Of a DNA stretch of 64,000 nt, positions 9,473 through 39,235 are shown one piece after another. Both the position numbers and the translations under genes were made by a program. Every line of letters begins with the position of its first letter. Position 1 is the stretch's first letter. The notes beneath the pieces are model-generated. The model was given only the letters and a program-made list of their open reading frames with translations, searched no databases and was not told the origin of the DNA. This DNA comes from Emcibacteraceae bacterium (lineage in GTDB: Bacteria; Pseudomonadota; Alphaproteobacteria; Sphingomonadales; Emcibacteraceae), in NCBI GenBank assembly GCA_021774795.1, contig JAJFIR010000012.1, forward strand, positions 62,001-126,000, written 5' to 3'.

Positions 9473-10177
9473 TTGAATAACGGAAAACGCCAATTTAAAT
9501 ATTATGATCTGATGATGGCCGCCTTTGTGGTGATCCTCGTCTGTTCAAATATAATTGGTCCTGCAAAACTTGCTACCGTCGAAATTGGTGATATGAATTT
9601 CATTTATGGGGCAGGGGTTTTGTTTTTTCCTCTGTCCTATGTTTTTGGAGACGTGCTAACCGAAGTGTATGGTTATGCACGCGCCAGAAAAGTGATCTGG
9701 GTAGGCTTCGTCGGATTGTTTTTTGCATCAATCATGAGTTACATCATTGTCACTTTACCTCCCGCTCCCGGTTGGGAAGGACAAGAAGCATATACACTAA
9801 TTTTTGGCCAAGTTCCTCGCATAGTTCTTGCGTCACTAATTGCTTTTTTTACCGGTGAAATGATCAATGCATATGTCATGGCCCGAATGAAAATCTGGAC
9901 GCGCGGCAAACATTTATGGACCCGCACTATTGGCTCGACCGTCGTAGGCCAGGGAGCGGACAGTTTAATTTTCTATCCAGTCGCCTTTTTTGGTATCTGG
10001 GAAAATGATGTGTTGCTTACCGTGATGGGTTCCAATTTTCTGATTAAAGTTTCGTGGGAAGCTACTTTAACACCGGTGACCTATAAATTGGTTAGTGTTC
10101 TTAAAAAAGCTGAAGATGTTGATATATTTGACGATAATACGAACTTTTCGCCCTTTAAAATAAACGCTGATTCGTAA
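9473..10177 (+). CDS. Queuosine precursor transporter (YhhQ/VUT family)
   Basis: A membrane protein of about 234 residues with several hydrophobic segments and the family pattern LFFPLSYVFGDVLTEVYGYARAR in its first third. YhhQ-family proteins take up pre-Q0 or pre-Q1 for queuosine tRNA modification. The open frame starts at a TTG 6 bp after the previous stop with little ribosome-binding signal, so the true start could be a nearby downstream codon. It runs on from the TPR genes and converges on the PLP-enzyme gene at its 3' end. Confidence 0.85.
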   Translation: MNNGKRQFKYYDLMMAAFVVILVCSNIIGPAKLATVEIGDMNFIYGAGVLFFPLSYVFGDVLTEVYGYARARKVIWVGFVGLFFASIMSYIIVTLPPAPGWEGQEAYTLIFGQVPRIVLASLIAFFTGEMINAYVMARMKIWTRGKHLWTRTIGSTVVGQGADSLIFYPVAFFGIWENDVLLTVMGSNFLIKVSWEATLTPVTYKLVSVLKKAEDVDIFDDNTNFSPFKINADS

Positions 10178-12207: not shown

Positions 12208-12978
12208 TTATACGTTAAGTTCGCACCAGATTGGTGTGTGATCCGAAGGGCGTTCTTTGCCGCGCGGGGTGCGGTCGATGTCACATTTTATGAGTTTGTC
12301 GGCCGCAGTGGGACTAAGAAGAAGATGATCAATTCTGACACCGTTGTCTTTGTTCCATGCGCCGGCCTGATAATCCCAATAAGTGTAATTTCTGCCGCTA
12401 GGATGGAACACCCGTAATGCATCAGTCAAACCCAAATTAAGTAAGCTATAATATCGGTCAATGCTTTCCGGTTGGCATAAAGCGTCGTCGATGAAACGGC
12501 TCATGTCGTAACAATCTTCATCTTTCGGACAAACGTTATAGTCGCCGCCTAAAACAAAATCTTCTTCTTGGTGTAGAAGTTCTTTCGCTCGTTCTATCAA
12601 TCTATCCATCCAAGCAATTTTATAATCAAATTTGGGACCCGGAACCGGATTTCCGTTTGGCAGATATAATCCACCAACTCGAACCTTACTAACCGTGGCT
12701 TCGATATATCTTGCCTGTTCATCACTATCATCACCAGGAAGTCCGATCATCAGGTCTTCAATAGGGTACTTGGATAAAATGGCAACGCCATTATATGATT
12801 TCTGGCCGTGCGTTGCTATGTTATAGCCGAGATCTTCTATTTCTTCCCTTGGAAAATTCTCATCAATGCATTTAAGTTCCTGAAGGACAGCCACATCGGG
12901 TTTGAATTCGCTAAGCCATTCCGTAACTCGGGGAAGCCTGGCTTTGATCGAGTTTACGTTCCAGGAAGCAATTTTCAT
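12208..12978 (-). CDS. xthA: Exodeoxyribonuclease III
   Basis: AP endonuclease and 3'-5' exonuclease of base-excision repair. The 256-residue length is typical. All family motifs are present: SWNVNSI at the N-terminus, LQELKC with the metal-binding glutamate, GGDYNVCP, and the C-terminal RIDHLLLS and SDHTPIW blocks containing the catalytic Asp-His. It lies 6 bp downstream of the end of erpA on the same strand, so the two are probably co-transcribed, and it converges with the AraC gene. Confidence 0.95.
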   Translation of the reverse strand: MKIASWNVNSIKARLPRVTEWLSEFKPDVAVLQELKCIDENFPREEIEDLGYNIATHGQKSYNGVAILSKYPIEDLMIGLPGDDSDEQARYIEATVSKVRVGGLYLPNGNPVPGPKFDYKIAWMDRLIERAKELLHQEEDFVLGGDYNVCPKDEDCYDMSRFIDDALCQPESIDRYYSLLNLGLTDALRVFHPSGRNYTYWDYQAGAWNKDNGVRIDHLLLSPTAADKLIKCDIDRTPRGKERPSDHTPIWCELNV

Positions 12979-25500: not shown

Positions 25501-27336
25501 TTATCCCATCGGCCCGAATATCAATGCCTTGTCACCAACGTCCATAAGATTACAGCTTTTAGTGAAACTACTGTGATCAACCGGGATGATAAATTTTAGA
25601 ATGGGTTCTTCCGGAAGTGGTGCAATCTTTAACCATCGGTACGGCAAATCCAGTTCTGTTACCTTTGGGTCAATTAATTCAAGAATAGCAGAATTACCAT
25701 TTTGGTTTTTAAATGCTGCCGGTTTTTCAAAGGTCAGTTCAATGGAACTTTGATCAATTACTTTTCTTTCAAGCAGTTTGACTATTCTTTCATCCGCTAT
25801 TTTGTCATTCGGATAGTCAGACCATTTTTCGTCCTCGTTCATCCTAAGTGCCGATAAAAATCCACCGAGTATAGCGCCAGTAAATCCACCGCCGGGAAAG
25901 GCCCATGCAGAGGCAAAATATAAGTTAGGAATAAGGAAATTATCTCTTAACCTGTTGAAGCCTGATTGCTTGGGTGTTTGCGCGAATCCGTAGACAGCTC
26001 CATTTGGATTAAGAGTAAATCGTTGAATGGTTTTAGGCGTAGAAACTTCAAAATACTCTATTTTTTCGCGTATTCCAGGAAATTGATTTTCCAGACGCTG
26101 CAATAAAACTTCAGCCACTTTTTCCTTCTTGGAATTATAAGCATCCTTACTGAGGTCTTTCCAGTCTTTAAGATAATCAACACTGCAAATCGCGCCAACG
26201 GTTTTGCCGGGAGGAGCCAACTGAGCGTCCACTTTAGCATAATCGACAAAAACAAAACTGCGTTTGGACCAATCACCTTGATTATTTGGGAGCATATCCT
26301 TGAGTGATTTTACATCCTCACCCATCATGCAAGTGGAGTAGTGATTGACACCGACAGATGTTAAATCAGACTTGAATCCTAAATATATGCATAATAACGA
26401 GCAGGCATTCTCATAGGGTGCTATCTTATTTTTCAAACTATTGGCATACGGTTCTTCAAGCATAGCAGGCACTAATGGAATGGCACAGTTGGCAATAACA
26501 TTGTCACAATCCACCGTCATCGGATTTAATTCTGAGTTGTAGCTATCTATATATGTAACACCGGTCGCATGATTATTTTTGCTGTTGATTTTCAGGGCTT
26601 TCTTTCCCAGTAAAACAGTCCCACCATTCTTTTCTATAAAGGATGCCAGATAGTCTGACAATTTTTGGGATCCACCCGTAACGAAATGGCCACCACCGCC
26701 AATAAAGCCGGATTGAGCCATACTGAAATAAAACATCGACATGCTATATGGGTTGTCCCCCCAGTAACCGAGATGTGCGGCCAGATCCAATTTCAGCTGT
26801 TCATTTGAAATATTTTTATCAAACCATTCACCTGCGCTGTGTCGCGAGGCTTCGACAATGTTTGGGTATAAAAGCGGCATAAATGGTAGAAATAGAATTT
26901 TTTTCCATTTTCCCCCGGGTAATTTGGTCATTTCCGCCCTAACTCCGGAAATAAGCTTCAAATACCGGGTTATCCCTTTTTCTTCTTCAGGATATTTATT
27001 CGTCAGAGCTTTTTTTACCTGCTCGAATCCATAGGGGAATACAAGCTCATGATTTTTGGAAACGAGATGATATAGTTCTGGGGCTTGCGTAAACTGAACG
27101 TTCTTGTCTACTTCCAGTAATTTGAACAAAGCTACTTTTCCATCCATATCATCAAGCCCGTCCATTTCGTGGAGCCCTACTTCAATGATGAAATCACCGC
27201 GTTTAAATGTCGTTGCACATCCGCCCGGTTTGTGATGTTGCTCTAGCAAGAGCACTTTTTTTCCAAACTTAGAAAGTGTGGCTCCGGCGACCAAGCCACC
27301 AAGCCCTCCACCGATAATAATTGTGTTGTATTTCAT
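25501..27336 (-). CDS. Phytoene desaturase/retinol saturase-like FAD oxidoreductase with a truncated C-terminal reductase-like segment
   Basis: 611 residues from the ATG at 27336, with AAGGA eight bases upstream; a TTG six codons earlier is less likely. The N-terminus has the FAD-binding dinucleotide fold IIIGGGLGGLVAGATL and then HHKPGGCATT. The C-terminal FAD motif lies around FASAWAFPGGGFTGAILGG. The class resembles CrtI/RetSat-type desaturases and saturases. After residue ~510 an extra segment resembles the FAD-binding barrel of ferredoxin-NADP reductases (VGDKALIFGPMG), but the protein stops right after GPMG, without the NAD domain. Twenty bases later begins the IS30-like fragment, so 3' truncation by rearrangement is likely. 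The substrate is unknown. Confidence 0.75.
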   Translation of the reverse strand: MKYNTIIIGGGLGGLVAGATLSKFGKKVLLLEQHHKPGGCATTFKRGDFIIEVGLHEMDGLDDMDGKVALFKLLEVDKNVQFTQAPELYHLVSKNHELVFPYGFEQVKKALTNKYPEEEKGITRYLKLISGVRAEMTKLPGGKWKKILFLPFMPLLYPNIVEASRHSAGEWFDKNISNEQLKLDLAAHLGYWGDNPYSMSMFYFSMAQSGFIGGGGHFVTGGSQKLSDYLASFIEKNGGTVLLGKKALKINSKNNHATGVTYIDSYNSELNPMTVDCDNVIANCAIPLVPAMLEEPYANSLKNKIAPYENACSLLCIYLGFKSDLTSVGVNHYSTCMMGEDVKSLKDMLPNNQGDWSKRSFVFVDYAKVDAQLAPPGKTVGAICSVDYLKDWKDLSKDAYNSKKEKVAEVLLQRLENQFPGIREKIEYFEVSTPKTIQRFTLNPNGAVYGFAQTPKQSGFNRLRDNFLIPNLYFASAWAFPGGGFTGAILGGFLSALRMNEDEKWSDYPNDKIADERIVKLLERKVIDQSSIELTFEKPAAFKNQNGNSAILELIDPKVTELDLPYRWLKIAPLPEEPILKFIIPVDHSSFTKSCNLMDVGDKALIFGPMG

Positions 27337-27752
27337 ATTAATTGTCCTTTCCAATTTATTTTAAATCTAATCGGGATACAGTCATTTGGGCACATAACAA
27401 AAAAACTAATCAAATGCAAAAGCATTTATTTTCAATAGGTTAAGTGAATTTTGATTCTCTTAGAGTGAAGAAAATTGAAGGTATTGACACGCAACTTAAC
27501 AAAGCCAATTTTCTCACGAGTAGAGAAAGGTTTATAAATCGTATTTTAGAATTTTTTTATCGATTTTGCGTTGACCGAAATCAATTAATGAAAAGATCGG
27601 TGATAAATTTTTGACTTAGATTACCTAGTCAATCAAAGTGATCATAATACCAGCAGAAAGATTTAACCAATGTGTTGCGTGACCGATTGAAATGACCGTC
27701 GGAAGCAGTCAGAAAGAAAGAATGTCAATTGGTTGCTCCTTTTTAATTCTCG
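27337..27752. other. Intergenic region between FAD oxidoreductase and M14 peptidase genes
   Basis: About 400 AT-rich bases upstream of the minus-strand oxidoreductase and downstream of the M14 peptidase. The last 14 bases belong to the right copy of the 269-bp repeat. The remainder should hold the oxidoreductase promoter. I see no convincing gene, hairpin terminator or insertion-sequence end. Confidence 0.6.
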
Positions 27753-28007
27753 CTAGCTCCGTGGTTGATCAAAAGCTTTTGAAAAATAAAGTCCGTTCAA
27801 GAACATTTTATTTGCCCCGTAAAAATAGGCTCTAAAATTTGGATTGTCGGAAAATAAAATAACCGACCCTTGCCCCATTCTTTGCGCGATGGCCATGGCT
27901 TTTCCGGCTAGTCTCGCCTGATTATCCGCACTGGCAAAACCGGCAGCCAACGAATTTTCGGGAATAGCAACGACTGTTGCATAGGGGTTCTTCGGTGGCT
28001 CAAAAGC
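27739..28007. repeat. Direct repeat, right copy (M14 peptidase 3' end)
   Basis: This is the source or sister copy of 25152-25420, lying at the true 3' end of the M14 gene. Together the copies flank the FAD oxidoreductase gene, so recombination between them could delete about 2.6 kb. Confidence 0.93.
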
Positions 28008-30317
28008 AATTAACGTATCGCGGTGCGTATGAACTTCGCGGTTAACATAGCCAAAGCCGATGGGATGGGAAATATCAAGGTCACCTTTCATGATTGCGCC
28101 GCCAATTATATTTTCAACTTCGTTGGGAATCTTACTGGCGTAGTCTTGTCGGTCCAGTGGGAATTCTTCTTTTTCATCTTTGATATCCAAAAGAATTTCA
28201 CCGGCCCATTTTGCGCCCTGACGGTGAGCGATGACAGTTCCGCCCCGCCGAACCCACGCTGATAGCTTTCGTTTTAATTCTTCGTCTTTGGCATTATATT
28301 GCCCGCCGACAAAAATAATGTGGGTGTAATCGGTGATGTCCAAAGTGTTTAAACTACTTTTGTCATAAAGGGTTACCGGAATTCTCATCCTATAATCCAA
28401 TAAGTGCCATACTTCCCCGGCGTCATAGGCACGGGTTCCTTCGCCAACCATCAGAAGTATTTTCGGTTTGGTTATTGGCTTGAAATTATTGCTGCCTAAA
28501 TCCATACCTGCGGTTGGTGTCCGTCCGCTGCCGACTGCGTGAATTTTTATGCCGTCTTCACGAGCGATAGTTTCTAATGTTTTTGTTAGGTCTCCGTGAT
28601 GTTCGCCGCCTTGCCAGCCGACAGGGATCATAATAGTGCCTGCGGCCATATCAATGGTTCCGTCTGGTGCGTTAATGCTAAATGGTTTGGTGGCTACTTT
28701 TGGCAGCACCCCAATTTGCAAAAGGCGGTTTAATGCCCTTGGTGCATAATATTCGTTCCATTCAAAAAGATAAGCAACGGTTGCTTCTTCGGGGGCGGAT
28801 TTGGACGGGAATATGGGTTTTACTAGATCACCTGCACTTGATAATTCCCGTGAGCCTACGGGCGCGTAATCCATACCGAAGGTGAGCGGCATTGTAAAGC
28901 CGGACACATCATAAAATGTATTGTTGTCAAACGTTGTTATTTTTTCAAAAATTCCTTTAATCAACGTATATTGCTGTTGACTTGTTTTTACCAGATAACT
29001 CTCACCCGCTTTATAGGTTTTGCTGTCAACAGTTGTGTCTCTATCGATAATATTAACGTCAATCTGGTGCCTGTTTAAAAGATCAAGAAAATGATAAGCG
29101 CGGGCGTTATCCTTGGGTGCAGCAAATATATACCCTTTAACAGTGTCGTTTGACGCAAATTCAATGGCATTGCGGTAAAAGCGTTTTTGATAATCAAGAA
29201 GTCTTGGGCGCAATTCAAGCCCGGCACGAACAATGGAAAGGCTCATATTCAAGTATGTTCTGACATTATCGCGAAACGACAAAACGCCGTGTACCGTGTC
29301 GATTTCGCCCAGTGTTCTTGCTTGTTCAAACAATAGTCCGATGCCGGCATTCAGATGCGGGTATGTAGCACCCTTGCCGATGTAAAAATTATCATACCCT
29401 TCTTCGCTGAAATATAACCTCGCTTCGCTATCCATAAACTGACGGGGGCGATCTGTAACTTCTTCCAGTAGCTGCATTGATTCTTCAGGAATAAACGGAA
29501 ACGTCCTTTTCGGCGCGCCGGGCGGAATATAGAAAGTGCTATTCGTTCCCATTTCATGATGGTCGGTGCTGATATTCGGTTTCCACTCATGAAATTTCTT
29601 AACCCAGCCTTGCGGTCCGGGCTGCTGTTGCAGCAACCATTGGCGATTAAGATCGAACCAATAGTGGTTTGTGCGGCCGCCCGGCCAAAAAGTATTGTGA
29701 TTTCGCCCGTTAGGGTCGGTGACGGGTACGTTCGATCCATGCATGTGGTTCCACGCGGACTGCCGGCTGTTACCATCCGGATTAAAAATGGCAATAAGTA
29801 GTATAACGCTGTTTTTAAGCGTTTCATCCATATAGTCGCTTTGCGCAGCAGCCAGGTAATACGCTACCGCTATGGAGCTGTCAGTGGAGCTAACCTCGGC
29901 ACCGTGAACGCCGTAATTTAACCAAGTGACCACCGGCATGTCCTCTTGAACCGTTTGATCTGAATTTGGGTCGCTTAATGCAACATGCGCCGCTTTTATT
30001 TCATCAATGCGTGCGATATTTTCAGGGGAGCTGATGGTCAGCATTAATATATCGCGACCTTCATGTGTCTTGGCGATTGTTTCCACATTAACGCGGTCCG
30101 AAAGCTCAGCGACCGTTCGCATATATTTAAGCAGTAGATCATGGCGCGTCACGCGGTGCCCAAGCGGGTGCCCTATGATTGTTTCGGGTTTTGGAATAGC
30201 TTCATTGTAGCTAACATTATCGGGATAAAAGCTTTTATTTCTTTTTGATTGTGCGTTAGATGCATGCGGCACAATTATTAAAATTATGCATGTTAAGAGC
30301 AGGTTGAAGTGTTTCAT
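27753..30317 (-). CDS. Secreted M14 zinc carboxypeptidase-like protein
   Basis: 854 residues from the ATG at 30317, which places a clean signal peptide (core LLLTCIILIIVP, cleavage near SNA-Q) at the very N-terminus; the frame is open six codons further up. The zinc motif HxxE is in NYGVHGAEVSSTDS. A later histidine lies in STDHHEMGTN and a candidate catalytic glutamate in LLFEQARTLGE. The long C-terminal half carries a glutamine-amidotransferase-like region (HIIFVGGQYNAKDEE), as in the ~850-residue M14 proteins of marine bacteria. It should act on peptides in the periplasm. Its 3' end is duplicated at 25152-25420. Confidence 0.88.
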   Translation of the reverse strand: MKHFNLLLTCIILIIVPHASNAQSKRNKSFYPDNVSYNEAIPKPETIIGHPLGHRVTRHDLLLKYMRTVAELSDRVNVETIAKTHEGRDILMLTISSPENIARIDEIKAAHVALSDPNSDQTVQEDMPVVTWLNYGVHGAEVSSTDSSIAVAYYLAAAQSDYMDETLKNSVILLIAIFNPDGNSRQSAWNHMHGSNVPVTDPNGRNHNTFWPGGRTNHYWFDLNRQWLLQQQPGPQGWVKKFHEWKPNISTDHHEMGTNSTFYIPPGAPKRTFPFIPEESMQLLEEVTDRPRQFMDSEARLYFSEEGYDNFYIGKGATYPHLNAGIGLLFEQARTLGEIDTVHGVLSFRDNVRTYLNMSLSIVRAGLELRPRLLDYQKRFYRNAIEFASNDTVKGYIFAAPKDNARAYHFLDLLNRHQIDVNIIDRDTTVDSKTYKAGESYLVKTSQQQYTLIKGIFEKITTFDNNTFYDVSGFTMPLTFGMDYAPVGSRELSSAGDLVKPIFPSKSAPEEATVAYLFEWNEYYAPRALNRLLQIGVLPKVATKPFSINAPDGTIDMAAGTIMIPVGWQGGEHHGDLTKTLETIAREDGIKIHAVGSGRTPTAGMDLGSNNFKPITKPKILLMVGEGTRAYDAGEVWHLLDYRMRIPVTLYDKSSLNTLDITDYTHIIFVGGQYNAKDEELKRKLSAWVRRGGTVIAHRQGAKWAGEILLDIKDEKEEFPLDRQDYASKIPNEVENIIGGAIMKGDLDISHPIGFGYVNREVHTHRDTLIAFEPPKNPYATVVAIPENSLAAGFASADNQARLAGKAMAIAQRMGQGSVILFSDNPNFRAYFYGANKMFLNGLYFSKAFDQPRS

Positions 30318-30413
30318 AAAATATTCCCATCCCATATTATGTCTTTAATGGCTAAATCCTATTCAAAAGATAGCAATCACGCAAGAGGAGCATGAATATA
30401 TGTCAGTCATTTC

Positions 30414-30442
30414 TTTTCACTGTTGGAATTTTGATTTATAAT
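30414..30442 (+). promoter_or_regulatory. Sigma-70-like promoter for the ATP-grasp/AsnB-like cassette
   Basis: A perfect TATAAT at 30437-30442 has TTTTCA (4 of 6 matches to TTGACA) 17 bases upstream. Transcription would start near 30449. AAGGG then precedes the ATG at 30473. Confidence 0.5.
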
Positions 30443-30472
30443 AATCTTGAACTTTTGGCATAAGGGTAAATT

Positions 30473-31453
30473 ATGATAGTTGATATTTCCGATATTCGCG
30501 TTTTGTTTTTGGGAAACTGTGCCGATCCTAATATGGCTCTTTCAGACGATCCGGAAATAAAAGCAAAACGAAGGTACCAATCAGAAATATATGTGGTTCT
30601 TAGTGAGTTGTGTAAAGAGGTGATTGGTTCAGATGATCCTGAAGATCTCTTTAAGAGAAAAGGAGAGTATGACTTTGTCTTTTCACTTTATAACCGAATG
30701 GGGTTTCGTTCTTGTGAAGTTTTTATTTCGACAATTTGCGAATATTTGAGAGTACCTTATTTGGGGTCTTATCCCGAAGTTCGGGGTATTGCAGAAAATA
30801 AGAAACTGTTTAAATTTGTCGCGACTTCTTGCGGAATTCCGGCGCCACAAAGCGCAGCATTTTACCGAAATGAAAAAATAATTAAACCGGATAATTTAAC
30901 TGCGCCTTATTTTGTAAAACCAATGAAAGGAGCTAATTCGGAGTGGATAGACGATAATTCTTACTGCCTGGACTGGGAATCTGCTGCAAAGCAGATAGAA
31001 TTTCTTCATTCCAACGGTATAGCAGTCTTAGTAGAGGAATTTGCAGAAGGTATAAATTTAACCGTCCCCGTGCTGGGTGGAAAAGGACCAAAAATGCTCG
31101 GAGTTGTGGAAGTATTTACTGAGCAAGCTAATGGATTACGAACAACTCACGAGAAGCTTCAAGAATATTGTGATTTGACATATAAATTATGCGATAAACA
31201 AGTGGTTGTAAACGCTATTGAAAAACACGCCTTATTAATACAGGACGCTTTAAAGCCCTTAGATTATTTTCAGATCGACTATCGTTACAATCCTTCAAAC
31301 GACCAATTGTTTATTTTGGAAATTAATATATGCTGCCATATAGCGTCATTTGGAAGCTTCGGGTTTGCTGCTCAAAAAAGTGGTATATCGCACAAAAATT
31401 TAGTCCGCACTATTTTGCAAACAAGTATGGAGAGACAAGGTTTGATATCTTGA
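30473..31453 (+). CDS. ATP-grasp ligase (D-Ala-D-Ala ligase-like)
   Basis: A 326-residue ATP-grasp enzyme. Around residue 110 lies NKKLFKFVATSCGIPAP, the typical entry to the ATP-grasp fold. PYFVKPMKGANSEW contains the nucleotide-binding lysine, VEEFAEGINLTVPV the hinge and glycine loop, and DYFQIDYR then FILEINICC the magnesium-binding Asp and Glu/Asn. The layout is that of D-alanine-D-alanine ligase relatives that join a carboxylate to an amine through an acyl phosphate. Three asparagine-synthase-like genes follow, the first two bases after its stop. The gene is AT-rich compared with its neighbours. The substrate is unknown. Confidence 0.85.
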   Translation: MIVDISDIRVLFLGNCADPNMALSDDPEIKAKRRYQSEIYVVLSELCKEVIGSDDPEDLFKRKGEYDFVFSLYNRMGFRSCEVFISTICEYLRVPYLGSYPEVRGIAENKKLFKFVATSCGIPAPQSAAFYRNEKIIKPDNLTAPYFVKPMKGANSEWIDDNSYCLDWESAAKQIEFLHSNGIAVLVEEFAEGINLTVPVLGGKGPKMLGVVEVFTEQANGLRTTHEKLQEYCDLTYKLCDKQVVVNAIEKHALLIQDALKPLDYFQIDYRYNPSNDQLFILEINICCHIASFGSFGFAAQKSGISHKNLVRTILQTSMERQGLIS

Positions 31454-31454
31454 T

Positions 31455-33188
31455 ATGGGAGAACATATAAAGATTAATTTTGATGTTCTTGATGAATATT
31501 TTGAAAAAAAATGCGGGGGTAAAGAATATTTTTTAGGTGGATGGTCGGTAGATCCGATTAATCTTTCGATGAATAATTTATCGGATAATATACAGATAGA
31601 ACATGGAAAGAACTGGTTTGTGCTGCGTAATGGTGCAGATGTTGTGGATGGACTAATCTTTCCAAAAGAGAATATAGAAGACCCGGAAGCTATCGTATTT
31701 AGAGGATATCTTGCACAGGCTTCTATTCATACCTATTCTCCCGCAGAAAAAATTAAAAAATATTACTCGAAAGACATGCTCAGACGTCACAATGGTATTT
31801 TTAGTGCGGTAAAGATTTCTGAAGAAGGGAAAAAAATTGAGCTGCTCACGGACATTCTTGGAATTGGCCCCTTATATTATAGAAAGGTGGGAACTCTTGT
31901 TCTCTTTTCGTCGTCCCCCGGACTTTTGAGCCTAAAAGATGATGAGCCGGATATGATGTCCTGGTTTTTGCGCATAAGGACAGAATATATACCCGGTAGG
32001 AAATCATTAATAAAAAATGTTGAAGTTGTGCCCGAAGCGAGTGTCATGACATTCTCGGATCAGGGCCAGGTAATTCAAAAATGGTATGATTATAATAATT
32101 TTCCGAGAGGAAACGAAGAAGCATCGGAGCGTTCAGTTGATCTTTCTGAAGAACATTTTATTGTTGCAATGAAAAGATGCCAGGAAATACAATTTCATAA
32201 GACATTTTTACCGCTGTCAAGTGGTTATGATAGTAAAAGAATTCTGGCTCATTTGATGAAGAATGAGACGGAGTTTGAAGCATTCACCGTACAAGCACCT
32301 GAAAAAACAGGAGAGGATATCGACGCTGTTTGTGTGCGGAAAATTGTTGAAGATTTTGAAATTAAACATCACATGTTTAATTTTCCGTCACCCGAAGATT
32401 GGCATAAAAATAATGTTCAAAGAATATTTAGTGTTGACGGTCATTGCCAATTTCACACTTGGTCGGTACCAGTTTTCAACTATTATGGTAGTCAGAACGG
32501 GTGTTTCTACGACGGATTAGGAGGGGACACTTTTAATTTTATGGGTTGGATTTTTCGAAATCATGTGGAAAAAGAAATCCCTACCGCATTTCCAAAGTTT
32601 TTGAGGAAAAATCGATTTCCGTCGTATCATTCAATTGCTACAAAATTGAGAGATATGAAATCCAGGCAACCTAAGGGAAAAAACCAAAGTATACTGACTT
32701 TCGCTTTGTGGCAGACCAGGAAAAGTACCAGTTTGTGGATACAACAACAAGCGAGGCCCGGACATATTATATTATGCCCCTATCTCGATTTGGATTATGT
32801 CGAGACCATGATGCGATTTTCTGTTGAAGATAATGTAGAGGGCAGACCGCAGAAAGCCATACTTTATAAATATTGGCCAAAACTGGCTCAATATCCTGGT
32901 ACCAGAGAACGCCCTGAACATGTTGTAGATATCAGTGATCTGGAAAAAGAAAATGATCGTTTAGCCACTAAAAAACTATTAGGTCTTTCATTTACGGTTA
33001 AAACTGATAAATATCATTATCAACATATTTTAACCTTTTTTGCGAATATTCTGCTGCTCGTATCACAATACTTTAATGTTCCAGGAGTAAGGTCAGAATG
33101 GTGGATAAAACAAGTTTCAGAGCTTGTTTTTTGGTGGCAATCTCGCCCAATTGTTATTGAGTTGAGAGATGTTAAAAATAAAAAATGA
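31455..33188 (+). CDS. Asparagine synthase-like protein, copy 1
   Basis: A 577-residue protein of the asparagine-synthetase fold. The N-terminal half resembles a class II glutamine amidotransferase (HNGIFSAV at 112-119, ILGIGPLYY near 134) but lacks the nucleophilic Cys at position 2, where Gly is found. The C-terminal half has the pyrophosphate loop SSGYDS at 255-260 and the GLGGD motif at 354-358. It should therefore adenylate a carboxylate but cannot draw ammonia from glutamine. A hydrophobic helix (TFFANILLLVSQYF) and a Trp-rich end (WWIKQ...FWWQSRP) follow. It starts one base after the ATP-grasp gene's stop and is the first of three collinear paralogues. Confidence 0.85.
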   Translation: MGEHIKINFDVLDEYFEKKCGGKEYFLGGWSVDPINLSMNNLSDNIQIEHGKNWFVLRNGADVVDGLIFPKENIEDPEAIVFRGYLAQASIHTYSPAEKIKKYYSKDMLRRHNGIFSAVKISEEGKKIELLTDILGIGPLYYRKVGTLVLFSSSPGLLSLKDDEPDMMSWFLRIRTEYIPGRKSLIKNVEVVPEASVMTFSDQGQVIQKWYDYNNFPRGNEEASERSVDLSEEHFIVAMKRCQEIQFHKTFLPLSSGYDSKRILAHLMKNETEFEAFTVQAPEKTGEDIDAVCVRKIVEDFEIKHHMFNFPSPEDWHKNNVQRIFSVDGHCQFHTWSVPVFNYYGSQNGCFYDGLGGDTFNFMGWIFRNHVEKEIPTAFPKFLRKNRFPSYHSIATKLRDMKSRQPKGKNQSILTFALWQTRKSTSLWIQQQARPGHIILCPYLDLDYVETMMRFSVEDNVEGRPQKAILYKYWPKLAQYPGTRERPEHVVDISDLEKENDRLATKKLLGLSFTVKTDKYHYQHILTFFANILLLVSQYFNVPGVRSEWWIKQVSELVFWWQSRPIVIELRDVKNKK

Positions 33189-33221
33189 ATGTAAAATTAT
33201 AGATTGGGGAATATTAGATTA

Positions 33222-34946
33222 ATGGGCAAATTGATCAGAATTAATAGCGATGTATTAAATCAATATATTGAAGAAAAATGTGGGGGGAAAGAGTACTTCT
33301 TAGGGTGTTGGTCCCCAGATGATATATCCGTTAAGACAGGTGACATGCCAGACAATATCCAAATGGAAAAAGCGAATAATTGGTTTGTCCTAAGAAATGG
33401 AGCTGATAAAACGGATGGAATTATTTTTCCTAAGAAAAATGAAACTGATCCAGAGGTTGTCGTTTTTAGAGGGTATCTAGCAGATGCAGGAATTCATTCC
33501 TATTCACCCGCTAAGGACATAAGACAGTTTTGGTCTGGTAAGTTAAACAGAAGATACAACGGAATATTCAGCGCAGTAACGATAGAAGAAGGCGGTGGAA
33601 AGTTAAATATTATTACTGATATATTTGGGATTGGGCCAGTTTTTATACGTAAAATTGGTAAAATGATTTTCTTTTCTTCCGCTCCCGGTTTATTAGCGAT
33701 GAATAGTGATAAGCCAAACAAAATGTCTTGGATAATGCGTATCCTTGAAGGAAGTATCCCGGGGAATGAGTCATTGATCGATAGCGTAGATATGGTTGAT
33801 CCCGCAAGTATTATGTCCTTTACGAGCGACGGGTCTACAATTGAAAAATGGTATAATCATGAAAATTTCCCTAAAGGTGAAGAGCATTTTAATAGTGACA
33901 CGATAGAACTTTCCGAGAAGAGTTTTGCCGAAGCGATGAAGCGATGTTCAAATATCAATTACGGCAAAACGATTTTACCCCTATCAAGTGGTTATGACAG
34001 TCGACGTATTTTTGCGCACCTTGATAAAAGCAGTAGAAAATTTGAAACATGCTCGGTCCAAATGCCTGAAAAAAATGGATCCGATATAGATGCCCTCGTG
34101 GGGAAACAGATTGCGTCAGATTATAATATTCCACACACCACACTATTTATGCCTGATCAGTTTGAATGGTTCAAAATGAATACACAAAAAATCTATTCAT
34201 TTGACGGTCAAAGCCATTCACATACATGGAGCGTTTTGATGTTTAATCATTATAATGGCCAGGCGGGTTGTTTTTATGATGGAATATGTGGTGATAATTT
34301 TGCAGTTAGAGCATTCGATTTTGATGAATTAACGATTGATAAGAAACCTTCTAGCGGTCCGAATTTTTTGAAGAAATGTTTGTTTCCAACTTACGAACAA
34401 ATATCGCACGTGTATGATGAATTATATTTGGTTGAGCAATACGGTAAAAATAGGTCAGTTCTAACATTTATTTTGTGGGTAACGCGTAAAGGCACAAGCA
34501 TATGGGCGCAGCAACAAGCGCGACCGGGGCAAATATTTTTATGCCCTTATCTAGATATCGAACATATTGAATTGATGTTGAAATTTATTCTGAGAGATGA
34601 TGAAGATTACCTTTCTCAGAAAGCAATACTAGACAAAAAATGGCCAAAACTGGCATCCTATAATAGTAAATACGATTTAATAAAAACCGATTCTGTTATT
34701 GGTCCACAGCGGGCTCTCAATGAAAACTACGCTAACAAAATGACATTAATTAACAGTTATAAAGCAAAAAGTAATAACTTTCACTATAGTATGATATTAA
34801 GTTTGCCAGCGAGATGTTTATTATTTTGCTCAATGTATAGTCGGTTGGTAGCGCAAAAAATTGAATGGTGGTCTGAGGAATTAGCAGAGGTGATGTTATG
34901 GTGGCAGACAAAACCTCAAGTAATTGATGTGAAAAAAAATAAATAA
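33222..34946 (+). CDS. Asparagine synthase-like protein, copy 2
   Basis: 574 residues from the ATG at 33222, which aligns its N-terminus (MGKLIRIN...) one-to-one with copy 1; the frame opens at a TTG 18 bases earlier. About half of its residues match copy 1 by eye. The PP-loop is again SSGYDS. The GGD motif is altered to GICGD, so its adenylation site differs from the sister copies. Position 2 is Gly, so glutaminase function is not expected. The C-terminal hydrophobic helix and WW...LWWQTKP motif are conserved. The substrate is unknown. Confidence 0.83.
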   Translation: MGKLIRINSDVLNQYIEEKCGGKEYFLGCWSPDDISVKTGDMPDNIQMEKANNWFVLRNGADKTDGIIFPKKNETDPEVVVFRGYLADAGIHSYSPAKDIRQFWSGKLNRRYNGIFSAVTIEEGGGKLNIITDIFGIGPVFIRKIGKMIFFSSAPGLLAMNSDKPNKMSWIMRILEGSIPGNESLIDSVDMVDPASIMSFTSDGSTIEKWYNHENFPKGEEHFNSDTIELSEKSFAEAMKRCSNINYGKTILPLSSGYDSRRIFAHLDKSSRKFETCSVQMPEKNGSDIDALVGKQIASDYNIPHTTLFMPDQFEWFKMNTQKIYSFDGQSHSHTWSVLMFNHYNGQAGCFYDGICGDNFAVRAFDFDELTIDKKPSSGPNFLKKCLFPTYEQISHVYDELYLVEQYGKNRSVLTFILWVTRKGTSIWAQQQARPGQIFLCPYLDIEHIELMLKFILRDDEDYLSQKAILDKKWPKLASYNSKYDLIKTDSVIGPQRALNENYANKMTLINSYKAKSNNFHYSMILSLPARCLLFCSMYSRLVAQKIEWWSEELAEVMLWWQTKPQVIDVKKNK

Positions 34947-34989
34947 ATAACCAAGTTGGTTTTTTGCGATAGAGGGAAGCAAATTAACG

Positions 34990-36720
34990 ATGGCGGTAAC
35001 TGTAAACTTAAATATTGATATTCTGGATAACTACATAGAAAATAAATGCGGTGGTAAGGAATATTTTCTGGGTTGCTGGTCTCCAAATGGATTGAACTTT
35101 ACATCCAATAGTGTACCGGATCATATTCAAGTAGAGAACAAAAAAAATTGGTTTGTTCTGCGTAACGGTGCGGATAAAACGAATGGTTTAATACATAAAT
35201 CTAATGAAGTGGATGAACCTCAAGTTGTTGTGTTTAGGGGATATCTGGTAGACGAAAATATCCATTCTTATTCTTCTTCCAGTCGTGTGAGGCACTACTG
35301 GTCTAATAATTTATTGAAGCGGCATAACGGAATTTTCAGTGCAATTATAATTGGTGAAAATGGCCATCAACTGGATATCGTAACAGATATTTTTGGGATC
35401 AACCCATTATTCTACCGTAAAGTTGGAGATCTGATATTTTTTTCATCGGCCCCGGGATTGCTTGCCATGAGTGGCGATAGTCCGGATACGGCCGCGTGGG
35501 TTCTAAATGCGGTTTTAGGTTATATCCCGGGTAACAGTTCTTTGACAAAAGAAATTAAAATGGCTGATCCCGCGTCGGTTACACGGTTTACAATTGAACA
35601 AATGGAATCCATCCAATGGCATAAAGACGAAGAATTCCCCGTGGGTGACAAAGATGTGAATGAATTAGCACTGAAATTATCCCATCAATACTTAGAAAGC
35701 GCGATCAATAAATGTATTAAAATGCAGCACGGAAAAACGGTTATTCCTTTATCAGGTGGGCATGACAGTAGACGCTTGTTTGCGCATGTCGTTGATAGTG
35801 CTACTGCATTTGAAACATGTACAGTGCGCATGACGACCGCGACTGGCGAAGATCTCGACCTGTTCTACGGAATTAAAATAGCGCGTGATTATAATATTGA
35901 CCATGTGGCCATTGAATTACCTAACAAAGTGGAATGGAAAGATAATGACATACAGAGAATTTATTCCATGGACGGTCAAAGTCTGGTTCATACCTGGTCG
36001 GTATCTATGTTTAAACATTATTCTAACGAGGAAATTAGCCTATATGATGGCATGGGCGGCGATGTGTTTGGCTTTCATGGTTTAATAGTTAATGACGATA
36101 AAGATATTAAGCTTCCAATAGCTATGCCTAAACAGCTTAAACGAGACGCGTTTCCTTCAGACGAACACATTTCGCAACAAATAATTGCGCTCAAAAATAG
36201 TCACGCTCCAGGCCCCAATCACGGCATGCTTGTTTTTCTCGAAGGACAATCTAGAAAATCAACCTGTTTATGGGCGCAACAGCAGACGAGACCAGGTCAA
36301 CTCACTATTTATCCTTATCTTGAATTGGACTATGTAGAGCTTATGCTCCAGTATTCCTATAAAGAAAAAACATACGAAAGAAACCAGCTTAATATTATGA
36401 AAAAATATTGGCCTAAATTGGCTTCATACCCGTCCAGTAGAAACATTCCGGAAGGTGCAAAAAAAATTAATCATATTTATAGAGTTAATAATCGCTATGC
36501 AATGAAACAATTACTTAAAGAAAGCTATAGTCGCAATTCAAGTGAATTTCACTTCAAGTCATTTTTAACCTGGTCAGCCAGAATTCTTTTATATTGTTCG
36601 CAATTTAGTAACTATATCGAAGTAAAAACAAAATGGTGGTCACGCCCAATAACGGAACTTGTTTTTTGGTGGCAATCGCGACCATTTATCGTTGAAGTGC
36701 AAAACGAAGAAAAAGAATAA
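34990..36720 (+). CDS. Asparagine synthase-like protein, copy 3
   Basis: 576 residues, collinear with the two upstream paralogues from KCGGKEYFLG near the N-terminus to the Trp-rich C-terminus (KWWSRP...FWWQSRP). Its PP-loop SGGHDS is closest to the canonical SGGxDS, and its second motif is GMGGD, so it is the most likely fully active copy. Position 2 is Ala rather than the nucleophilic Cys. A possible membrane-contacting helix (TWSARILLYCSQF) precedes the end. A flippase gene follows 49 bp downstream. Confidence 0.85.
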   Translation: MAVTVNLNIDILDNYIENKCGGKEYFLGCWSPNGLNFTSNSVPDHIQVENKKNWFVLRNGADKTNGLIHKSNEVDEPQVVVFRGYLVDENIHSYSSSSRVRHYWSNNLLKRHNGIFSAIIIGENGHQLDIVTDIFGINPLFYRKVGDLIFFSSAPGLLAMSGDSPDTAAWVLNAVLGYIPGNSSLTKEIKMADPASVTRFTIEQMESIQWHKDEEFPVGDKDVNELALKLSHQYLESAINKCIKMQHGKTVIPLSGGHDSRRLFAHVVDSATAFETCTVRMTTATGEDLDLFYGIKIARDYNIDHVAIELPNKVEWKDNDIQRIYSMDGQSLVHTWSVSMFKHYSNEEISLYDGMGGDVFGFHGLIVNDDKDIKLPIAMPKQLKRDAFPSDEHISQQIIALKNSHAPGPNHGMLVFLEGQSRKSTCLWAQQQTRPGQLTIYPYLELDYVELMLQYSYKEKTYERNQLNIMKKYWPKLASYPSSRNIPEGAKKINHIYRVNNRYAMKQLLKESYSRNSSEFHFKSFLTWSARILLYCSQFSNYIEVKTKWWSRPITELVFWWQSRPFIVEVQNEEKE

Positions 36721-36769
36721 ATTATAAAGCAGTATATTTTACTAATAATATTTAATCAGAAAAAATAAA

Positions 36770-38251
36770 ATGACAGTTGATAATCCTAAGGCAGGAAAAA
36801 CTTTTTTTATAAATAGCGTGTGGGCCATAGCAACGAGGATGTCTATCCGGTTTCTTGGTGTGATCAGTATTATTATACTCGCCCGATTACTTTCTCCAGA
36901 TGATTTCGGGATCGTCGCTAAAGCCGTAATGATCCAATCCTTTCTGGAACTGGTGTCGTCACTTGGCCTTGAAACAGCATTAATCACAGATCAAAAAGCT
37001 GGCAAAGAACATTATAATACGGTTTGGACATTGCAAATTCTAAGAGGAATGTTAATTGGCCTTGTTCTTGCCGCGTTAGCGGGACCAGCTGCGGTATATT
37101 TTCATGAACCTGAACTAACCATTATTATTTACGCCTACGCAGCGATTTCCTTTTTTGGCGGATTTTATAATATCGGCGTAGTTGATTTTAGGAAACATCT
37201 AGAATTTAATCGGGATTTTCGATATAATTTATATAAGAAAGTGATTGCCTTTGCGACGACCATCACCATCGCGTTTATTTGGCAAACTTACTGGGCCTTA
37301 GTCGCCGGTGTGGCGGCCGCCATGCTGACGACAATTATTTCAAGCTTTATAATGTCATCATACCGGCCAAAATTAACTTTACTCAAATGGCGCGATCTAT
37401 TTCATTTTTCCAAATGGATGATGATCCATGAAATTATGGCGTCCCTGGCGTATCAAGTTGATTCATTTATATTAGCTCGATTTTCAACGGCTAACATATT
37501 GGGCGTTTATGTTGTCTCAAGCGAACTTGCACACACGCCAACCTCCGAACTCGCAATGTCTGTCTCCCGTGCGGCATCACCTTCACTCGCAAAGTTTAAT
37601 GATAACCTTGTAAAACTTAAGGATCTTTACCAAAAATCACTGGCATTAATGGTTTTAATTGCTGTACCGGCTGGTGTGGGAATTAGTGTTTTATCGCAAG
37701 AGCTGGTAAACCTGTTTCTAGGGGCTAAATGGCAAGAGGCGGTTCCACTGATTGAAATTATGGCTATTTACGGTATCTTTACATTGTTTACTGCAAATTC
37801 AATTTCTGCACTAATTTCGGCAGGTAGGATCAACATTCTTGCCTACTTGTCAACAACGCGGATAATACTCAGAACGAGTGCATTAGTGATTGGTTTTATG
37901 ATTAATGGTGTGATGGGTATGGTCATTGCGGCGTTATGTGCCGTAATCTTATATGTATTTATCTCATTGAGTATGCAGCAATATTATAAAATATTTCATT
38001 TTGTGGATTTGTTCGTTTTAAGTTGGAGAAGCCTTGTGTCAGCTGTGGTAATGTATTTTGGACTAATTTCTTTCAAATCATATTTATACTCTTCATTTGA
38101 ACTTGGCGATATTCTTAATACGGCAGCGATAGTGCTTGCCGGGGGACTGATTTATGGATGCTGCTTATTATTACTATGGCAGTTTTGCCGAAGGTGCGAA
38201 GGACCAGAAAATGATATCATTCAATTTATATTAAAAAGGGGAAATGCTTAA
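36770..38251 (+). CDS. Wzx/MATE-type oligosaccharide (lipopolysaccharide) flippase
   Basis: A polytopic membrane protein of 493 residues with about 12-14 hydrophobic segments. Its N-terminus has the family pattern ILARLLSPDDFGIVAKA, typical of polysaccharide exporters of the MOP superfamily (WzxC-like). Such proteins flip lipid-linked glycans or precursors to the outer leaflet. No glycosyltransferase is nearby, so its cargo here may be what the upstream ATP-grasp and AsnB-like enzymes make or modify. The dehydratase gene begins 3 bases after its stop. Confidence 0.88.
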   Translation: MTVDNPKAGKTFFINSVWAIATRMSIRFLGVISIIILARLLSPDDFGIVAKAVMIQSFLELVSSLGLETALITDQKAGKEHYNTVWTLQILRGMLIGLVLAALAGPAAVYFHEPELTIIIYAYAAISFFGGFYNIGVVDFRKHLEFNRDFRYNLYKKVIAFATTITIAFIWQTYWALVAGVAAAMLTTIISSFIMSSYRPKLTLLKWRDLFHFSKWMMIHEIMASLAYQVDSFILARFSTANILGVYVVSSELAHTPTSELAMSVSRAASPSLAKFNDNLVKLKDLYQKSLALMVLIAVPAGVGISVLSQELVNLFLGAKWQEAVPLIEIMAIYGIFTLFTANSISALISAGRINILAYLSTTRIILRTSALVIGFMINGVMGMVIAALCAVILYVFISLSMQQYYKIFHFVDLFVLSWRSLVSAVVMYFGLISFKSYLYSSFELGDILNTAAIVLAGGLIYGCCLLLLWQFCRRCEGPENDIIQFILKRGNA

Positions 38252-38254
38252 AAT

Positions 38255-39235
38255 ATGGATAAAAAGTTACCTGAATTCGAAGATGTCGTCTCAGCATCGA
38301 ATAGAATATCCGGTCTCGCCGTTAAGACACCCTTGTTAAAATGTGAACAATTATCAGATGATTTGTCCGCGCAAATTTATGTAAAAGCGGAATGTTTGCA
38401 GCGCGTTGGCGCGTTTAAATTTCGCGGTGCTTATAATCGGCTTTCACGGTTAACGGATGAAGAAAAAAAAAGGGGCGTTGTGGCTTATTCATCGGGCAAC
38501 CATGCTCAGGGAGTGGCGTTATCGGCCAAGTTGCTGGGTATCTATGCCGTGATCGTTATGCCGAGAGACTCGCCGAAGTTGAAACTTAAGAATACTAGAG
38601 ATTATGGTGCAGAGGTCATAACATATGACAGGGAAACAGAAAGCCGTGAAGAAATTGCCGATCAAATTTCACGTGATAAAGGCTGCATCGTTGTTCCTTC
38701 ATTCGAGGATTTTTATATAATTTCAGGGCAGGGAACTGTCGGACTAGAGGCGGTTAAGCAAGCAAAGGAAAAAGATATTGAACTTGACCTATTTATGACA
38801 CCGGTCGGGGGTGGCGGGTTAATTTCCGGCTGTTCTCTTGCGGTTAAAGAATTAAGTCCGTCCACCGAGATTTATGGTGTGGAACCGGACGGATTTAACG
38901 ACGTGCAGCGTTCGTTGGAAAGCGGTAAAATTGAGAGCAACTCAAATGCGTCAGGTTCAATATGTGACGCTATTTTAACGGTTCATCCGGAGCAAATGAC
39001 CTATACGATAATGAGCAATAATCTCACTGGAATATTAACGGTCACCGATGAAGAAGTCCTCGTCGCAATGAAATATGTATGGGAAAAATTAAAACTGGTT
39101 GTTGAACCGGGAGCATCTGTGGCTTTCGCCGCTATTCTACACGGTAAGATAAATGTAAAAGACAAAAATGTTTGTGTAGTTCTAAGCGGTGGAAACGTAG
39201 ATGAAGGCACGTTCAAAAAAGCATTGGATTGTTAG
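38255..39235 (+). CDS. Threonine/serine dehydratase (catabolic type, no ACT domain)
   Basis: Fold type II PLP enzyme of 326 residues. The PLP lysine is in GAFKFRGAYN and the phosphate loop is GGGGLISG. The length and lack of a C-terminal regulatory domain match TdcB, serine racemase and 3-hydroxyaspartate dehydratase relatives rather than IlvA. Products would be 2-oxobutyrate or pyruvate plus ammonia, or D-serine if it racemises. It lies 3 bases from the flippase stop, and the carbonic anhydrase gene starts one base after its own stop. It may therefore belong to the upstream cassette, or the coupling may be chance. Confidence 0.85.
   Translation: MDKKLPEFEDVVSASNRISGLAVKTPLLKCEQLSDDLSAQIYVKAECLQRVGAFKFRGAYNRLSRLTDEEKKRGVVAYSSGNHAQGVALSAKLLGIYAVIVMPRDSPKLKLKNTRDYGAEVITYDRETESREEIADQISRDKGCIVVPSFEDFYIISGQGTVGLEAVKQAKEKDIELDLFMTPVGGGGLISGCSLAVKELSPSTEIYGVEPDGFNDVQRSLESGKIESNSNASGSICDAILTVHPEQMTYTIMSNNLTGILTVTDEEVLVAMKYVWEKLKLVVEPGASVAFAAILHGKINVKDKNVCVVLSGGNVDEGTFKKALDC

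What the first reader, a model, noticed from the sequence alone, without database searches (positions are those of the whole stretch)
30473..38251. Uncharacterised cassette: ATP-grasp ligase, three tandem AsnB-like enzymes and a flippase
Seen: one ATP-grasp gene, three collinear asparagine-synthase-like paralogues and a Wzx-type flippase, all on one strand in an AT-rich block behind a single promoter-like site. Known: both enzyme types activate carboxylates with ATP to make amide-type bonds, and MOP-superfamily flippases move lipid-linked precursors. No glycosyltransferase, RiPP precursor or lasso-peptide partner gene is present. Inference: the cassette builds or amidates a membrane-linked small molecule or surface polymer that the flippase exports. 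I do not recognise this arrangement as a described pathway.
Basis: partly seen in the sequence, partly recalled or inferred. Interest (0 to 1): 0.75.

Follow-up and report, generated by a model that had tools for sequence, protein, structure and literature searches.

The report
Modular amide-ligase and flippase cassette
An alphaproteobacterium carries an optional block of five genes that look able to join acids to amines using ATP and to move a product across the membrane; its three central enzymes belong to a strongly diverged family seen so far only in this genus, and what they make is unknown.

Summary
Five intact, tightly packed + strand genes (30473-38251) encode a D-Ala-D-Ala-ligase-like ATP-grasp enzyme, three AsnB-like paralogues (43-48% identical) and a Wzx-like flippase. 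They are the five lowest-GC of 50 longer ORFs in the window. Comparison changes the picture. Among genomes searched, the five-gene set occurs only here; it combines parts found separately in a sister genome: ATP-grasp+AsnB (beside an MBOAT gene) and AsnB+AsnB+flippase. It fills a site that is empty in three sister genomes and holds one or two AsnB-like genes in three others. The AsnB-like family was found only in this genus (5 of 13 genomes, 12 genes). The close flippase subfamily is in exactly the same five genomes. A confident model (pLDDT 85) has the full AsnB/beta-lactam-synthetase fold; the glutaminase half is probably dead, while the ATP-pyrophosphatase loop is kept. Best reading: ammonia-independent amide ligases that build or decorate something the flippase exports, in an optional, swappable island. 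Substrate and product are not shown. A soluble peptide product (tabtoxin-like enzyme pair) or an unrelated gene mosaic remain open. Lasso-peptide synthesis is unlikely. New variant of a known kind; interest 0.42.

The parts
30336..30472 (+). Upstream intergenic stretch between the divergent M14 peptidase gene and the cassette; promoter-like TTTTCA-17-TATAAT at 30414-30442
   Evidence: the number of such sites in the region is about that in shuffles; by eye the M14-proximal part is alike in G008 and G009 (stretches printed)
30473..31453 (+). ATP-grasp ligase of the D-Ala-D-Ala-ligase superfamily, 326 aa
   Evidence: Pfam PF07478 47.8 bits; aligned to solved Ddl/Van ligases with the Asp and the Glu-x-Asn kept; 54% identical homologue beside an AsnB-like gene in G008:C86
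31455..33188 (+). AsnB-like protein 1, 577 aa
   Evidence: AlphaFold model pLDDT 85.2, pTM 0.89; full-length match to TsnB9, AsnB and beta-lactam synthetase
33222..34946 (+). AsnB-like protein 2 (ORF also open from TTG at 33204), 574 aa
   Evidence: 48% identical to protein 1; in the tree groups with G010:C9 gene a, support only 60
34990..36720 (+). AsnB-like protein 3, 576 aa
   Evidence: 43% identical to protein 1; groups with G010:C9 gene b, 54% identity, support 100
36770..38251 (+). MOP-superfamily flippase (Wzx/TuaB-like), 493 aa
   Evidence: PF13440 230 bits; close relatives (39-50%) only in the five AsnB-positive genomes of the genus
27753..30335 (-). Left boundary: divergent M14-type zinc carboxypeptidase gene, not part of the cassette
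   Evidence: PF00246; next to the BhcB-like gene without a cassette in G005, G006 and G012
38255..39235 (+). Right boundary: PLP-dependent ammonia-lyase-like gene (closest NCBIfam threo-3-hydroxy-L-aspartate ammonia-lyase, below cut-off), start of a run of genes shared by the genus, 3 bp after the flippase
   Evidence: found in 12 of 13 genus genomes, the missing one being 53% complete

Best explanation
The cassette is an optional, swappable module for making amide (peptide-type) bonds on a molecule that is then moved across the inner membrane. The ATP-grasp enzyme activates a carboxylate as an acyl phosphate and joins it to an amine. Each AsnB-like enzyme adenylates a carboxylate in its C-terminal ATP-pyrophosphatase half and couples it directly to an amine, not to glutamine-derived ammonia, because its N-terminal glutaminase half has lost the catalytic set-up (as in beta-lactam synthetase). 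The three copies have diverged to handle different substrates or successive steps. The Wzx-like flippase exports the product, most likely a lipid-linked glycan or small envelope precursor carrying amide-linked groups. Shown here: gene content, fold, degenerate glutaminase motifs, kept PP-loop, modular re-use, co-occurrence of AsnB family and flippase subfamily. Inferred: catalysis, direct amine coupling, lipid-linked substrate, export.
For: Fold: AlphaFold model of AsnB1 pLDDT 85.2; whole-length matches TsnB9 Z 23.7, E. coli AsnB Z 22.2, beta-lactam synthetase Z 21.2. Dead glutaminase: in the structural alignment 23 residues precede the residue that pairs with residue 1 (the catalytic Cys, recalled) of E. 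coli AsnB and of most PurF and GlmS rows, and that residue 24 is Glu in 12 of 12 family members; the Asn-Gly of the glutamine site (NGE in EcAsnB) is Arg/Lys-Gly. PP-loop S/T-x-G-x-D-S kept, second Asp (D358) invariant in 12 of 12. Flippase link: AsnB-AsnB-flippase also at G008:C7, flippase 50% identical against 39-43% for the other close relatives; close flippases in 5 of 5 AsnB-positive and 0 of 8 AsnB-negative genus genomes, Fisher p 0.0008, and the five are not a clade in a BhcB+gamma-CA tree. ATP-grasp link: at G008:C86 ATP-grasp, AsnB, an MBOAT gene (nearest NCBIfam model DltB, 117 bits, cut-off 375) and a fourth membrane-type gene follow one another. In G008, G009 and G010 an unlinked close flippase sits beside a CapA/PGA_cap protein.
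Against: The five-gene set was seen in one genome only; 6 of 8 AsnB-like loci lack the flippase and 6 of 8 lack the ATP-grasp gene. AsnB-like genes stand without either in G009:C20, G008:C87, G010:C9, G004:C393 and G000:C25. The Lys of E. coli AsnB (K449, number and role recalled), also present in the relatives shown in the alignment, has no conserved counterpart in the family, so activity could be altered or lost. Invariant Cys20 could in principle become an N-terminal Cys by cleavage. No glycosyltransferase is in the block. Wzy_C polymerase/ligase genes are in 5 of 5 AsnB-positive but also in 3 of 8 AsnB-negative genomes. The CapA neighbour was not found in G004, and G000 has only a distant match. 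The MBOAT gene is missing in G000 and present in AsnB-negative G006. The sample is 13 genomes, most of them draft, one 53% complete.
Confidence: 0.42

Rival explanations
1. A small secreted peptide-like metabolite: the ATP-grasp enzyme and an AsnB-like enzyme together make a modified dipeptide or lactam, like TblF and TblS in tabtoxin, and the MOP protein exports it as a soluble compound.
For: The same enzyme pair (D-Ala-D-Ala-ligase-like and beta-lactam-synthetase/AsnB-like) with an exporter is described for tabtoxin (PMC3927611, passages). The model matches beta-lactam and carbapenam synthetases along its whole length. The pair recurs at G008:C86.
Against: No oxidase, dioxygenase, thioesterase or other tailoring gene in the block; the exporter is of the polysaccharide-flippase family PF13440; three AsnB copies are not needed for one lactam; the other pair sits with an MBOAT gene.
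Confidence: 0.2
2. No joint pathway: the site between the M14 peptidase and the BhcB-like gene is an insertion hot spot where an amplifying AsnB-like family and other accessory genes pile up, and the ATP-grasp and flippase genes are neighbours by chance.
For: Four different contents of the site among seven genomes examined: empty in three, one AsnB-like gene in two, two in one, five genes in the window; AsnB-like genes often stand without the other two; the whole five-gene set is seen once; lowest GC in the window.
Against: The ATP-grasp-AsnB and AsnB-flippase adjacencies each recur at other loci in G008, same strand and order; tight spacing of 1-49 bp; flippase subfamily and AsnB family share their distribution.
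Confidence: 0.25
3. RiPP or lasso-like peptide maturation: the AsnB-like enzymes cyclise or amidate a ribosomal peptide.
For: Lasso cyclases belong to the asparagine synthetase family (PMC13060819, a preprint, passages; their dead glutaminase is recalled). The CapA-like neighbour of the unlinked flippase is nearest to the lasso epimerase MslH in NCBIfam (1.7e-18, 66 bits against a cut-off of 700); a short AsnB-like gene in the same operon in G006, G008 and G009 has a lasso cyclase as nearest model (G009 copy tested, 62.9 bits against 525).
Against: Lasso B protease PF13471: 0 of 13 genus genomes (this search also matched only 2 of 14 control genomes). No convincing small conserved ORF in the 21 stretches beside AsnB-like genes that were compared. 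The family itself is not nearest to lasso cyclases.
Confidence: 0.06
4. Glutamine-dependent amidation of a surface glycan (uronamide formation), with Cys20 freed by removal of 19 residues.
For: Cys20-Gly is invariant in 12 of 12 and a sequence alignment places it at Cys1 of AsnB; envelope amidotransferases of the AsnB family are known (recalled).
Against: The structural alignment puts residue 24, not 20, at Cys1; the glutamine-site NGE motif is lost; it would need a 19-residue propeptide.
Confidence: 0.07

Closest known systems
TsnB9 hydroxyamidotransferase (7ylz), AsnB family
   Same: Whole two-domain fold, best structural match (Z 23.7, rmsd 3.6, 486 aligned) and the only PDB sequence match of the family profile at E up to 1 (E 0.0029)
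   Different: 12% identity; the family has 23 residues before the position of the N-terminal nucleophile and a Glu at that position
Beta-lactam synthetase / carbapenam synthetase (1m1z, 1q15)
   Same: AsnB fold in which the glutaminase half no longer serves (recalled); Z 19.6-21.2; the alignment to beta-lactam synthetase starts at its residue 9 or 10, so it too has a lead
   Different: About 11-15% identity; the conserved Lys after the active site is not recognisable in the family; no clavam or carbapenem partner genes in the block
Tabtoxin enzymes TblS + TblF
   Same: AsnB/beta-lactam-synthetase-like plus D-Ala-D-Ala-ligase-like enzymes plus an exporter (PMC3927611 passages)
   Different: Three AsnB copies, polysaccharide-type flippase, none of the other tabtoxin genes in the block
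N-acetylglutaminylglutamine amide (NAGGN) enzymes (TIGR03104 amidotransferase with its ATP-grasp partner)
   Same: Best NCBIfam match of all three AsnB-like proteins (43.7-50.3 bits)
   Different: Cut-off is 570.1 bits; ATP-grasp here is Ddl-like, not the GNAT-ATP-grasp fusion (fusion recalled)
Wzx/WzxC/TuaB flippases
   Same: PF13440 230 bits; PRK10459 159.9 bits
   Different: Below the equivalog cut-offs (273 for PRK10459, 580 for TuaB); no glycosyltransferase or polymerase in the block

Membership tests
Asparagine synthetase B (glutamine-hydrolysing) | NCBIfam TIGR01536 score over cut-off 267.1 | tested here: not met
   41.1, 31.8 and 39.1 bits
Asparagine synthetase B (glutamine-hydrolysing) | N-terminal catalytic Cys after the initiator Met and Asn-Gly glutamine site | tested here: not met
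   Residue 2 is Gly/Gly/Ala in the three window copies; 23 residues precede the Cys1 position, which is Glu; NGE replaced by R/K-G-Y. Cleavage to expose Cys20 is not excluded
Asparagine synthetase B (glutamine-hydrolysing) | Two-domain AsnB fold with PP-loop SGGxDS and second Mg-binding Asp (roles recalled) | tested here: met
   Z 22.2 to 1ct9; S/T-x-G-x-D-S and invariant D358
Beta-lactam synthetase | AsnB fold with inactive glutaminase | tested here: met
   (inactivity inferred from motifs, not assayed)
Beta-lactam synthetase | Catalytic Lys and Tyr-Glu dyad of the synthetase site | tested here: inconclusive
   No conserved Lys at the position of the EcAsnB/relatives Lys; dyad not mapped
Lasso peptide synthetase | Partner leader protease PF13471 | tested here: not met
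   0 of 13 genus genomes; the control search matched 2 of 14
Lasso peptide synthetase | Precursor peptide gene beside the cyclase | tested here: inconclusive
   21 stretches compared, no convincing conserved small ORF; divergent precursors could be missed
D-alanine--D-alanine ligase superfamily | PF07478 over gathering score; metal-binding Asp and Glu-x-Asn | tested here: met
   47.8 against 24; D269, E283, N285 aligned to solved Ddl/Van ligases
D-alanine--D-alanine ligase (true Ddl) | TIGR01205 over 245.65 bits | tested here: not met
   56.9 bits
MOP/Wzx flippase | PF13440 over gathering score | tested here: met
   230.1 against 23
MOP/Wzx flippase | Adjacent glycan assembly genes (glycosyltransferases, Wzy) | tested here: not met
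   None within 30473-38251; Wzy_C occurs elsewhere in the genome and in 8 of 13 genus genomes
N-acetylglutaminylglutamine amide synthesis | TIGR03104 over 570.1 bits | tested here: not met
   46.7, 43.7, 50.3 bits

The most novel reading that the evidence does not exclude
A genus-specific family of ammonia-independent AsnB-like ligases that attach amino compounds to a flippase-exported, lipid-linked envelope molecule, multiplied and diversified copy by copy like a surface-variation system, with interchangeable membrane partners (flippase, MBOAT pair, CapA).
Probability: 0.27. Interest if true: 0.65.

Novelty: new variant of a known kind. Interest (0 to 1): 0.42.

Why it matters
AsnB-fold enzymes that have lost the glutaminase do unusual amide chemistry (beta-lactams, lasso rings; recalled). 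A family seen, as far as sampled, in one genus, present in one to four strongly diverged copies and tied to membrane transport genes, would be a new reservoir of such chemistry. It would also give a direct test of whether this fold can make intermolecular amide bonds on envelope precursors. It is a tractable gene set: five genes, one strand, clean empty sites in sister genomes.

Tried and rejected
Lasso/RiPP maturation: PF13471 absent from 13 of 13 genus genomes. Reading frames of 18 or more residues in 21 stretches beside AsnB-like genes were compared; four weak cross-locus matches came out, the best at E 7e-4 between G008 and G009, at the upstream end of the M14 gene; none looks like a precursor peptide.

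Plasmid or viral carriage: AsnB3 has no match at E <= 1e-8 in 72,556 plasmid records; in viral contigs 28 stretches matched a pattern of the A2 alignment but none encoded a relative. The ATP-grasp protein has only distant plasmid matches (22.9-27.9% identity, 15 records). In the two looked at the listed neighbours held no AsnB-like gene, but the plasmid gene table is incomplete.

Wider family search: class sample 1 of 385 genomes (the window's own) at E <= 1e-20; phylum sample 6 of 398 at E <= 1e-15, own plus five partial matches of 58-63 bits over about 205-284 of 576 positions, which I read as ordinary AsnB. Limits: these samples score at most three candidates per genome as printed, and for that reason they list only three of the four copies of the window's own genome (the C25 copy is not listed), so a member in a genome rich in AsnB genes could be missed. 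The single-protein scan of genome contigs found no relative; with the alignment it found 6 loci, all on contigs whose lengths match contigs of G004, G008, G009 and G010; it depends on short peptide patterns.

MBOAT as a fixed partner: the MBOAT gene (62-79% identical) is in G004, G006, G008, G009 and G010, with a second gene behind it, but beside AsnB only in G008; it is absent from G000 and present in AsnB-negative G006. The name DltD/AlgJ-like for the second gene is my reading: its only Pfam hint is DUF1574 below cut-off (18.8 against 29.1). Kept as a hint only.

Wzy_C as a co-travelling gene: 5 of 5 AsnB-positive and 3 of 8 AsnB-negative genomes, not decisive.

ATP-grasp structure model: pLDDT 45, not used.

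Literature: no paper in the held library met the term combinations searched for AsnB-like, ATP-grasp and flippase; these searches are narrow and do not show that nothing is in print. The listings (Emcibacteraceae or gene cluster; Emcibacteraceae, Emcibacterales) showed nothing on this cassette; those papers were not opened.
Full report
What is there. Searches confirm five intact + strand genes. One base separates the ATP-grasp stop (31453) from the AsnB1 start (31455); the later gaps are 33, 43 and 49 bp. The flippase stop (38251) is 3 bp before the next gene (38255), so the block runs without a break into a row of amino-acid metabolism genes: ammonia-lyase-like, gamma-carbonic-anhydrase-like, AgcS, sodium-dependent transporter, LL-diaminopimelate aminotransferase type. 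The five genes have the lowest GC of 50 ORFs of at least 150 aa.

Host. The window is part of a 3.9 Mb genome in 58 contigs. The records of one sister genome are titled Emcibacteraceae bacterium and others Alphaproteobacteria bacterium, so this is an alphaproteobacterium, probably of that family; the genus name was not determined. The cassette lies in a 132.8 kb contig whose flanking genes are collinear with sister genomes, so contamination is unlikely to explain it.

Insertion site. In G012, G005 and G006 (AsnB-negative) the M14 peptidase gene and the BhcB-like gene are neighbours with 58, 158 and 203 bp between the ORFs found. In G008:C87 and G009:C20 one AsnB-like gene lies there, in G010:C9 two AsnB-like genes lie before the BhcB-like gene (there without an M14 gene in the stretch read), and in the window 7.9 kb with five genes. 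Seven of the 12 genomes with a BhcB-like gene were examined at this site; four are occupied.

Modules. Eight loci with 12 AsnB-like genes were found in 5 of 13 genus genomes: G000:C4 (3 genes) and C25 (1), G004:C393 (1), G008:C87 (1), C86 (1) and C7 (2), G009:C20 (1), G010:C9 (2). G008:C86 has ATP-grasp, AsnB, MBOAT and a further gene whose only Pfam hint is DUF1574 below cut-off. G008:C7 has AsnB, AsnB and flippase, lying between homologues of window genes 9473-10177 and 12208-12978, with two more ORFs there that have no match in the window. Of the eight loci, only the window has both the ATP-grasp gene and the flippase. Contigs G004:C393 (5.8 kb) and G008:C86 (16 kb) are short, and the C25 copy lies 2.4 kb from a contig end, so absences there are weak. 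In the tree AsnB3 pairs with G010 gene b (support 100). AsnB2 pairs with G010 gene a with support of only 60, and by identity AsnB2 is nearer to AsnB1 (48% against 46%). The two G008:C7 genes are a local duplication (66% identity, support 100), and the C25, G004 and G009 copies form a group (100). The other inner nodes have support 36-77.

Distribution. The family was seen in no other genus: in the 47 other relatives of family or order the best match is partial, E 1e-9; 1 of 385 class genomes, its own; only partial matches of 58-63 bits in 5 of 398 phylum genomes besides its own. The last two searches score few candidates per genome and list only three of the four copies of the own genome, so they are not exhaustive. 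The flippase relatives at 39-50% identity are in exactly the same five genus genomes (G000, G004, G008, G009, G010); the next best flippases in the genus are 23-26% identical. Fisher exact p is 0.0008 for 13 genomes and 0.0013 for the 12 that are at least 90% complete. This ignores phylogeny, but the five are not a clade in a tree of two operon proteins from 12 genomes. Those proteins lie beside the insertion site, so that tree is not independent of local exchange.

AsnB-like proteins. The model of AsnB1 (11-sequence alignment) has pLDDT 85.2 and pTM 0.89. Foldseek and VIA-align find TsnB9, AsnB, beta-lactam and carbapenam synthetases along the full length, far above the next group (PurF, Z about 12). 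For E. coli AsnB and most PurF and GlmS rows the alignment begins with model residue 24 on chain residue 1, the catalytic Cys of those enzymes (its role is recalled); some rows begin at chain residue 2. Residue 24 is Glu in all 12 family members. A sequence alignment instead puts invariant Cys20 at Cys1; on either reading the Cys is not N-terminal as translated, and the NGE glutamine-site motif is gone. The synthetase half keeps the PP-loop and the second Asp. The Lys present in E. coli AsnB and in the relatives shown has no conserved counterpart, which counts against assuming standard catalysis.

ATP-grasp protein. It is clearly a Ddl-superfamily member with Asp269, Glu283 and Asn285 at metal-binding positions (roles recalled), but it fails the Ddl family cut-off and has a different loop after Glu-x-Asn. 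Its model was poor. Homologues of about 30% identity in G016, G041, G053 and G056 have a conserved gene beside them in G016, G041 and G056; in G053 a gene of the same kind lies in the fetched stretch. Two of these genes were tested and match the MobA-like NTP transferase family. That looks like a different system.

Mechanism. The most economical reading is two kinds of ATP-dependent amide ligase feeding a flippase. The flippase link rests on recurrence at G008:C7 and on the shared distribution. The envelope link is supported, weakly, by the MBOAT partner in G008 and by the CapA-like neighbour of the unlinked flippase in G008, G009 and G010, a neighbour that was not found in G004. CapA-family proteins occur in poly-gamma-glutamate and some lasso peptide clusters (PMC9266682, passages). 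Nothing here shows a substrate.

Comparison with the known. The nearest described gene combination that I found is TblS/TblF of tabtoxin (PMC3927611, passages). The arrangement with three AsnB copies and a polysaccharide-type flippase was not found in the narrow text searches done. I therefore rate it a new variant of a known kind: known folds and enzyme classes, with a family so far seen in one genus and a modular arrangement.

Noticed in passing
L033:11736-13241, L029:11699-13207, L035:999-2519: A second, shorter AsnB-like family (about 500 aa; the G009 copy is nearest to the NCBIfam lasso cyclase model, 2e-17, below cut-off) sits in the same operon between the gamma-CA-like and AgcS genes in G009, G008 and G006, but not in the window.
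   Followed up: partly
L086:6249-8854, L087:760-3365, L088:6688-9373: In G009, G008 and G010 a close flippase relative lies beside a CapA/PGA_cap protein with weak likeness to the lasso epimerase MslH.
   Followed up: partly
L030:10368-12808: MBOAT plus a second gene (read as DltD/AlgJ-like, weakly supported) next to AsnB and ATP-grasp in G008; the pair also occurs without them in G004, G006, G009 and G010.
   Followed up: yes
window 38251-38255: The flippase ends 3 bp before the BhcB-like gene, so the inserted cassette may now drive transcription of the shared amino-acid genes downstream.
   Followed up: no
window 25501-27354 compared with L094:8405-9784 and L029:4085-5455: The gene on the far side of the M14 peptidase also varies: an amine-oxidase-like FAD protein in the window, a 459/456-aa protein without a match in the window in G012 and G008. 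Both sides of the M14 gene look variable.
   Followed up: no
L030:3-5108: Two further M14-like peptidase genes (about 27% identical to the window's M14) lie on the same contig as the ATP-grasp-AsnB-MBOAT module of G008.
   Followed up: no
L030:15675-15989: The stretch upstream of the G008 ATP-grasp gene may encode the end of a PEP-CTERM-like protein (read by eye, motif recalled, not tested).
   Followed up: no
L090:7548-9370, L091:8856-10750, L092:7619-9616, L093:10976-11818: Distant ATP-grasp relatives in other genera have a conserved neighbour gene, MobA-like NTP transferase in the two tested.
   Followed up: no
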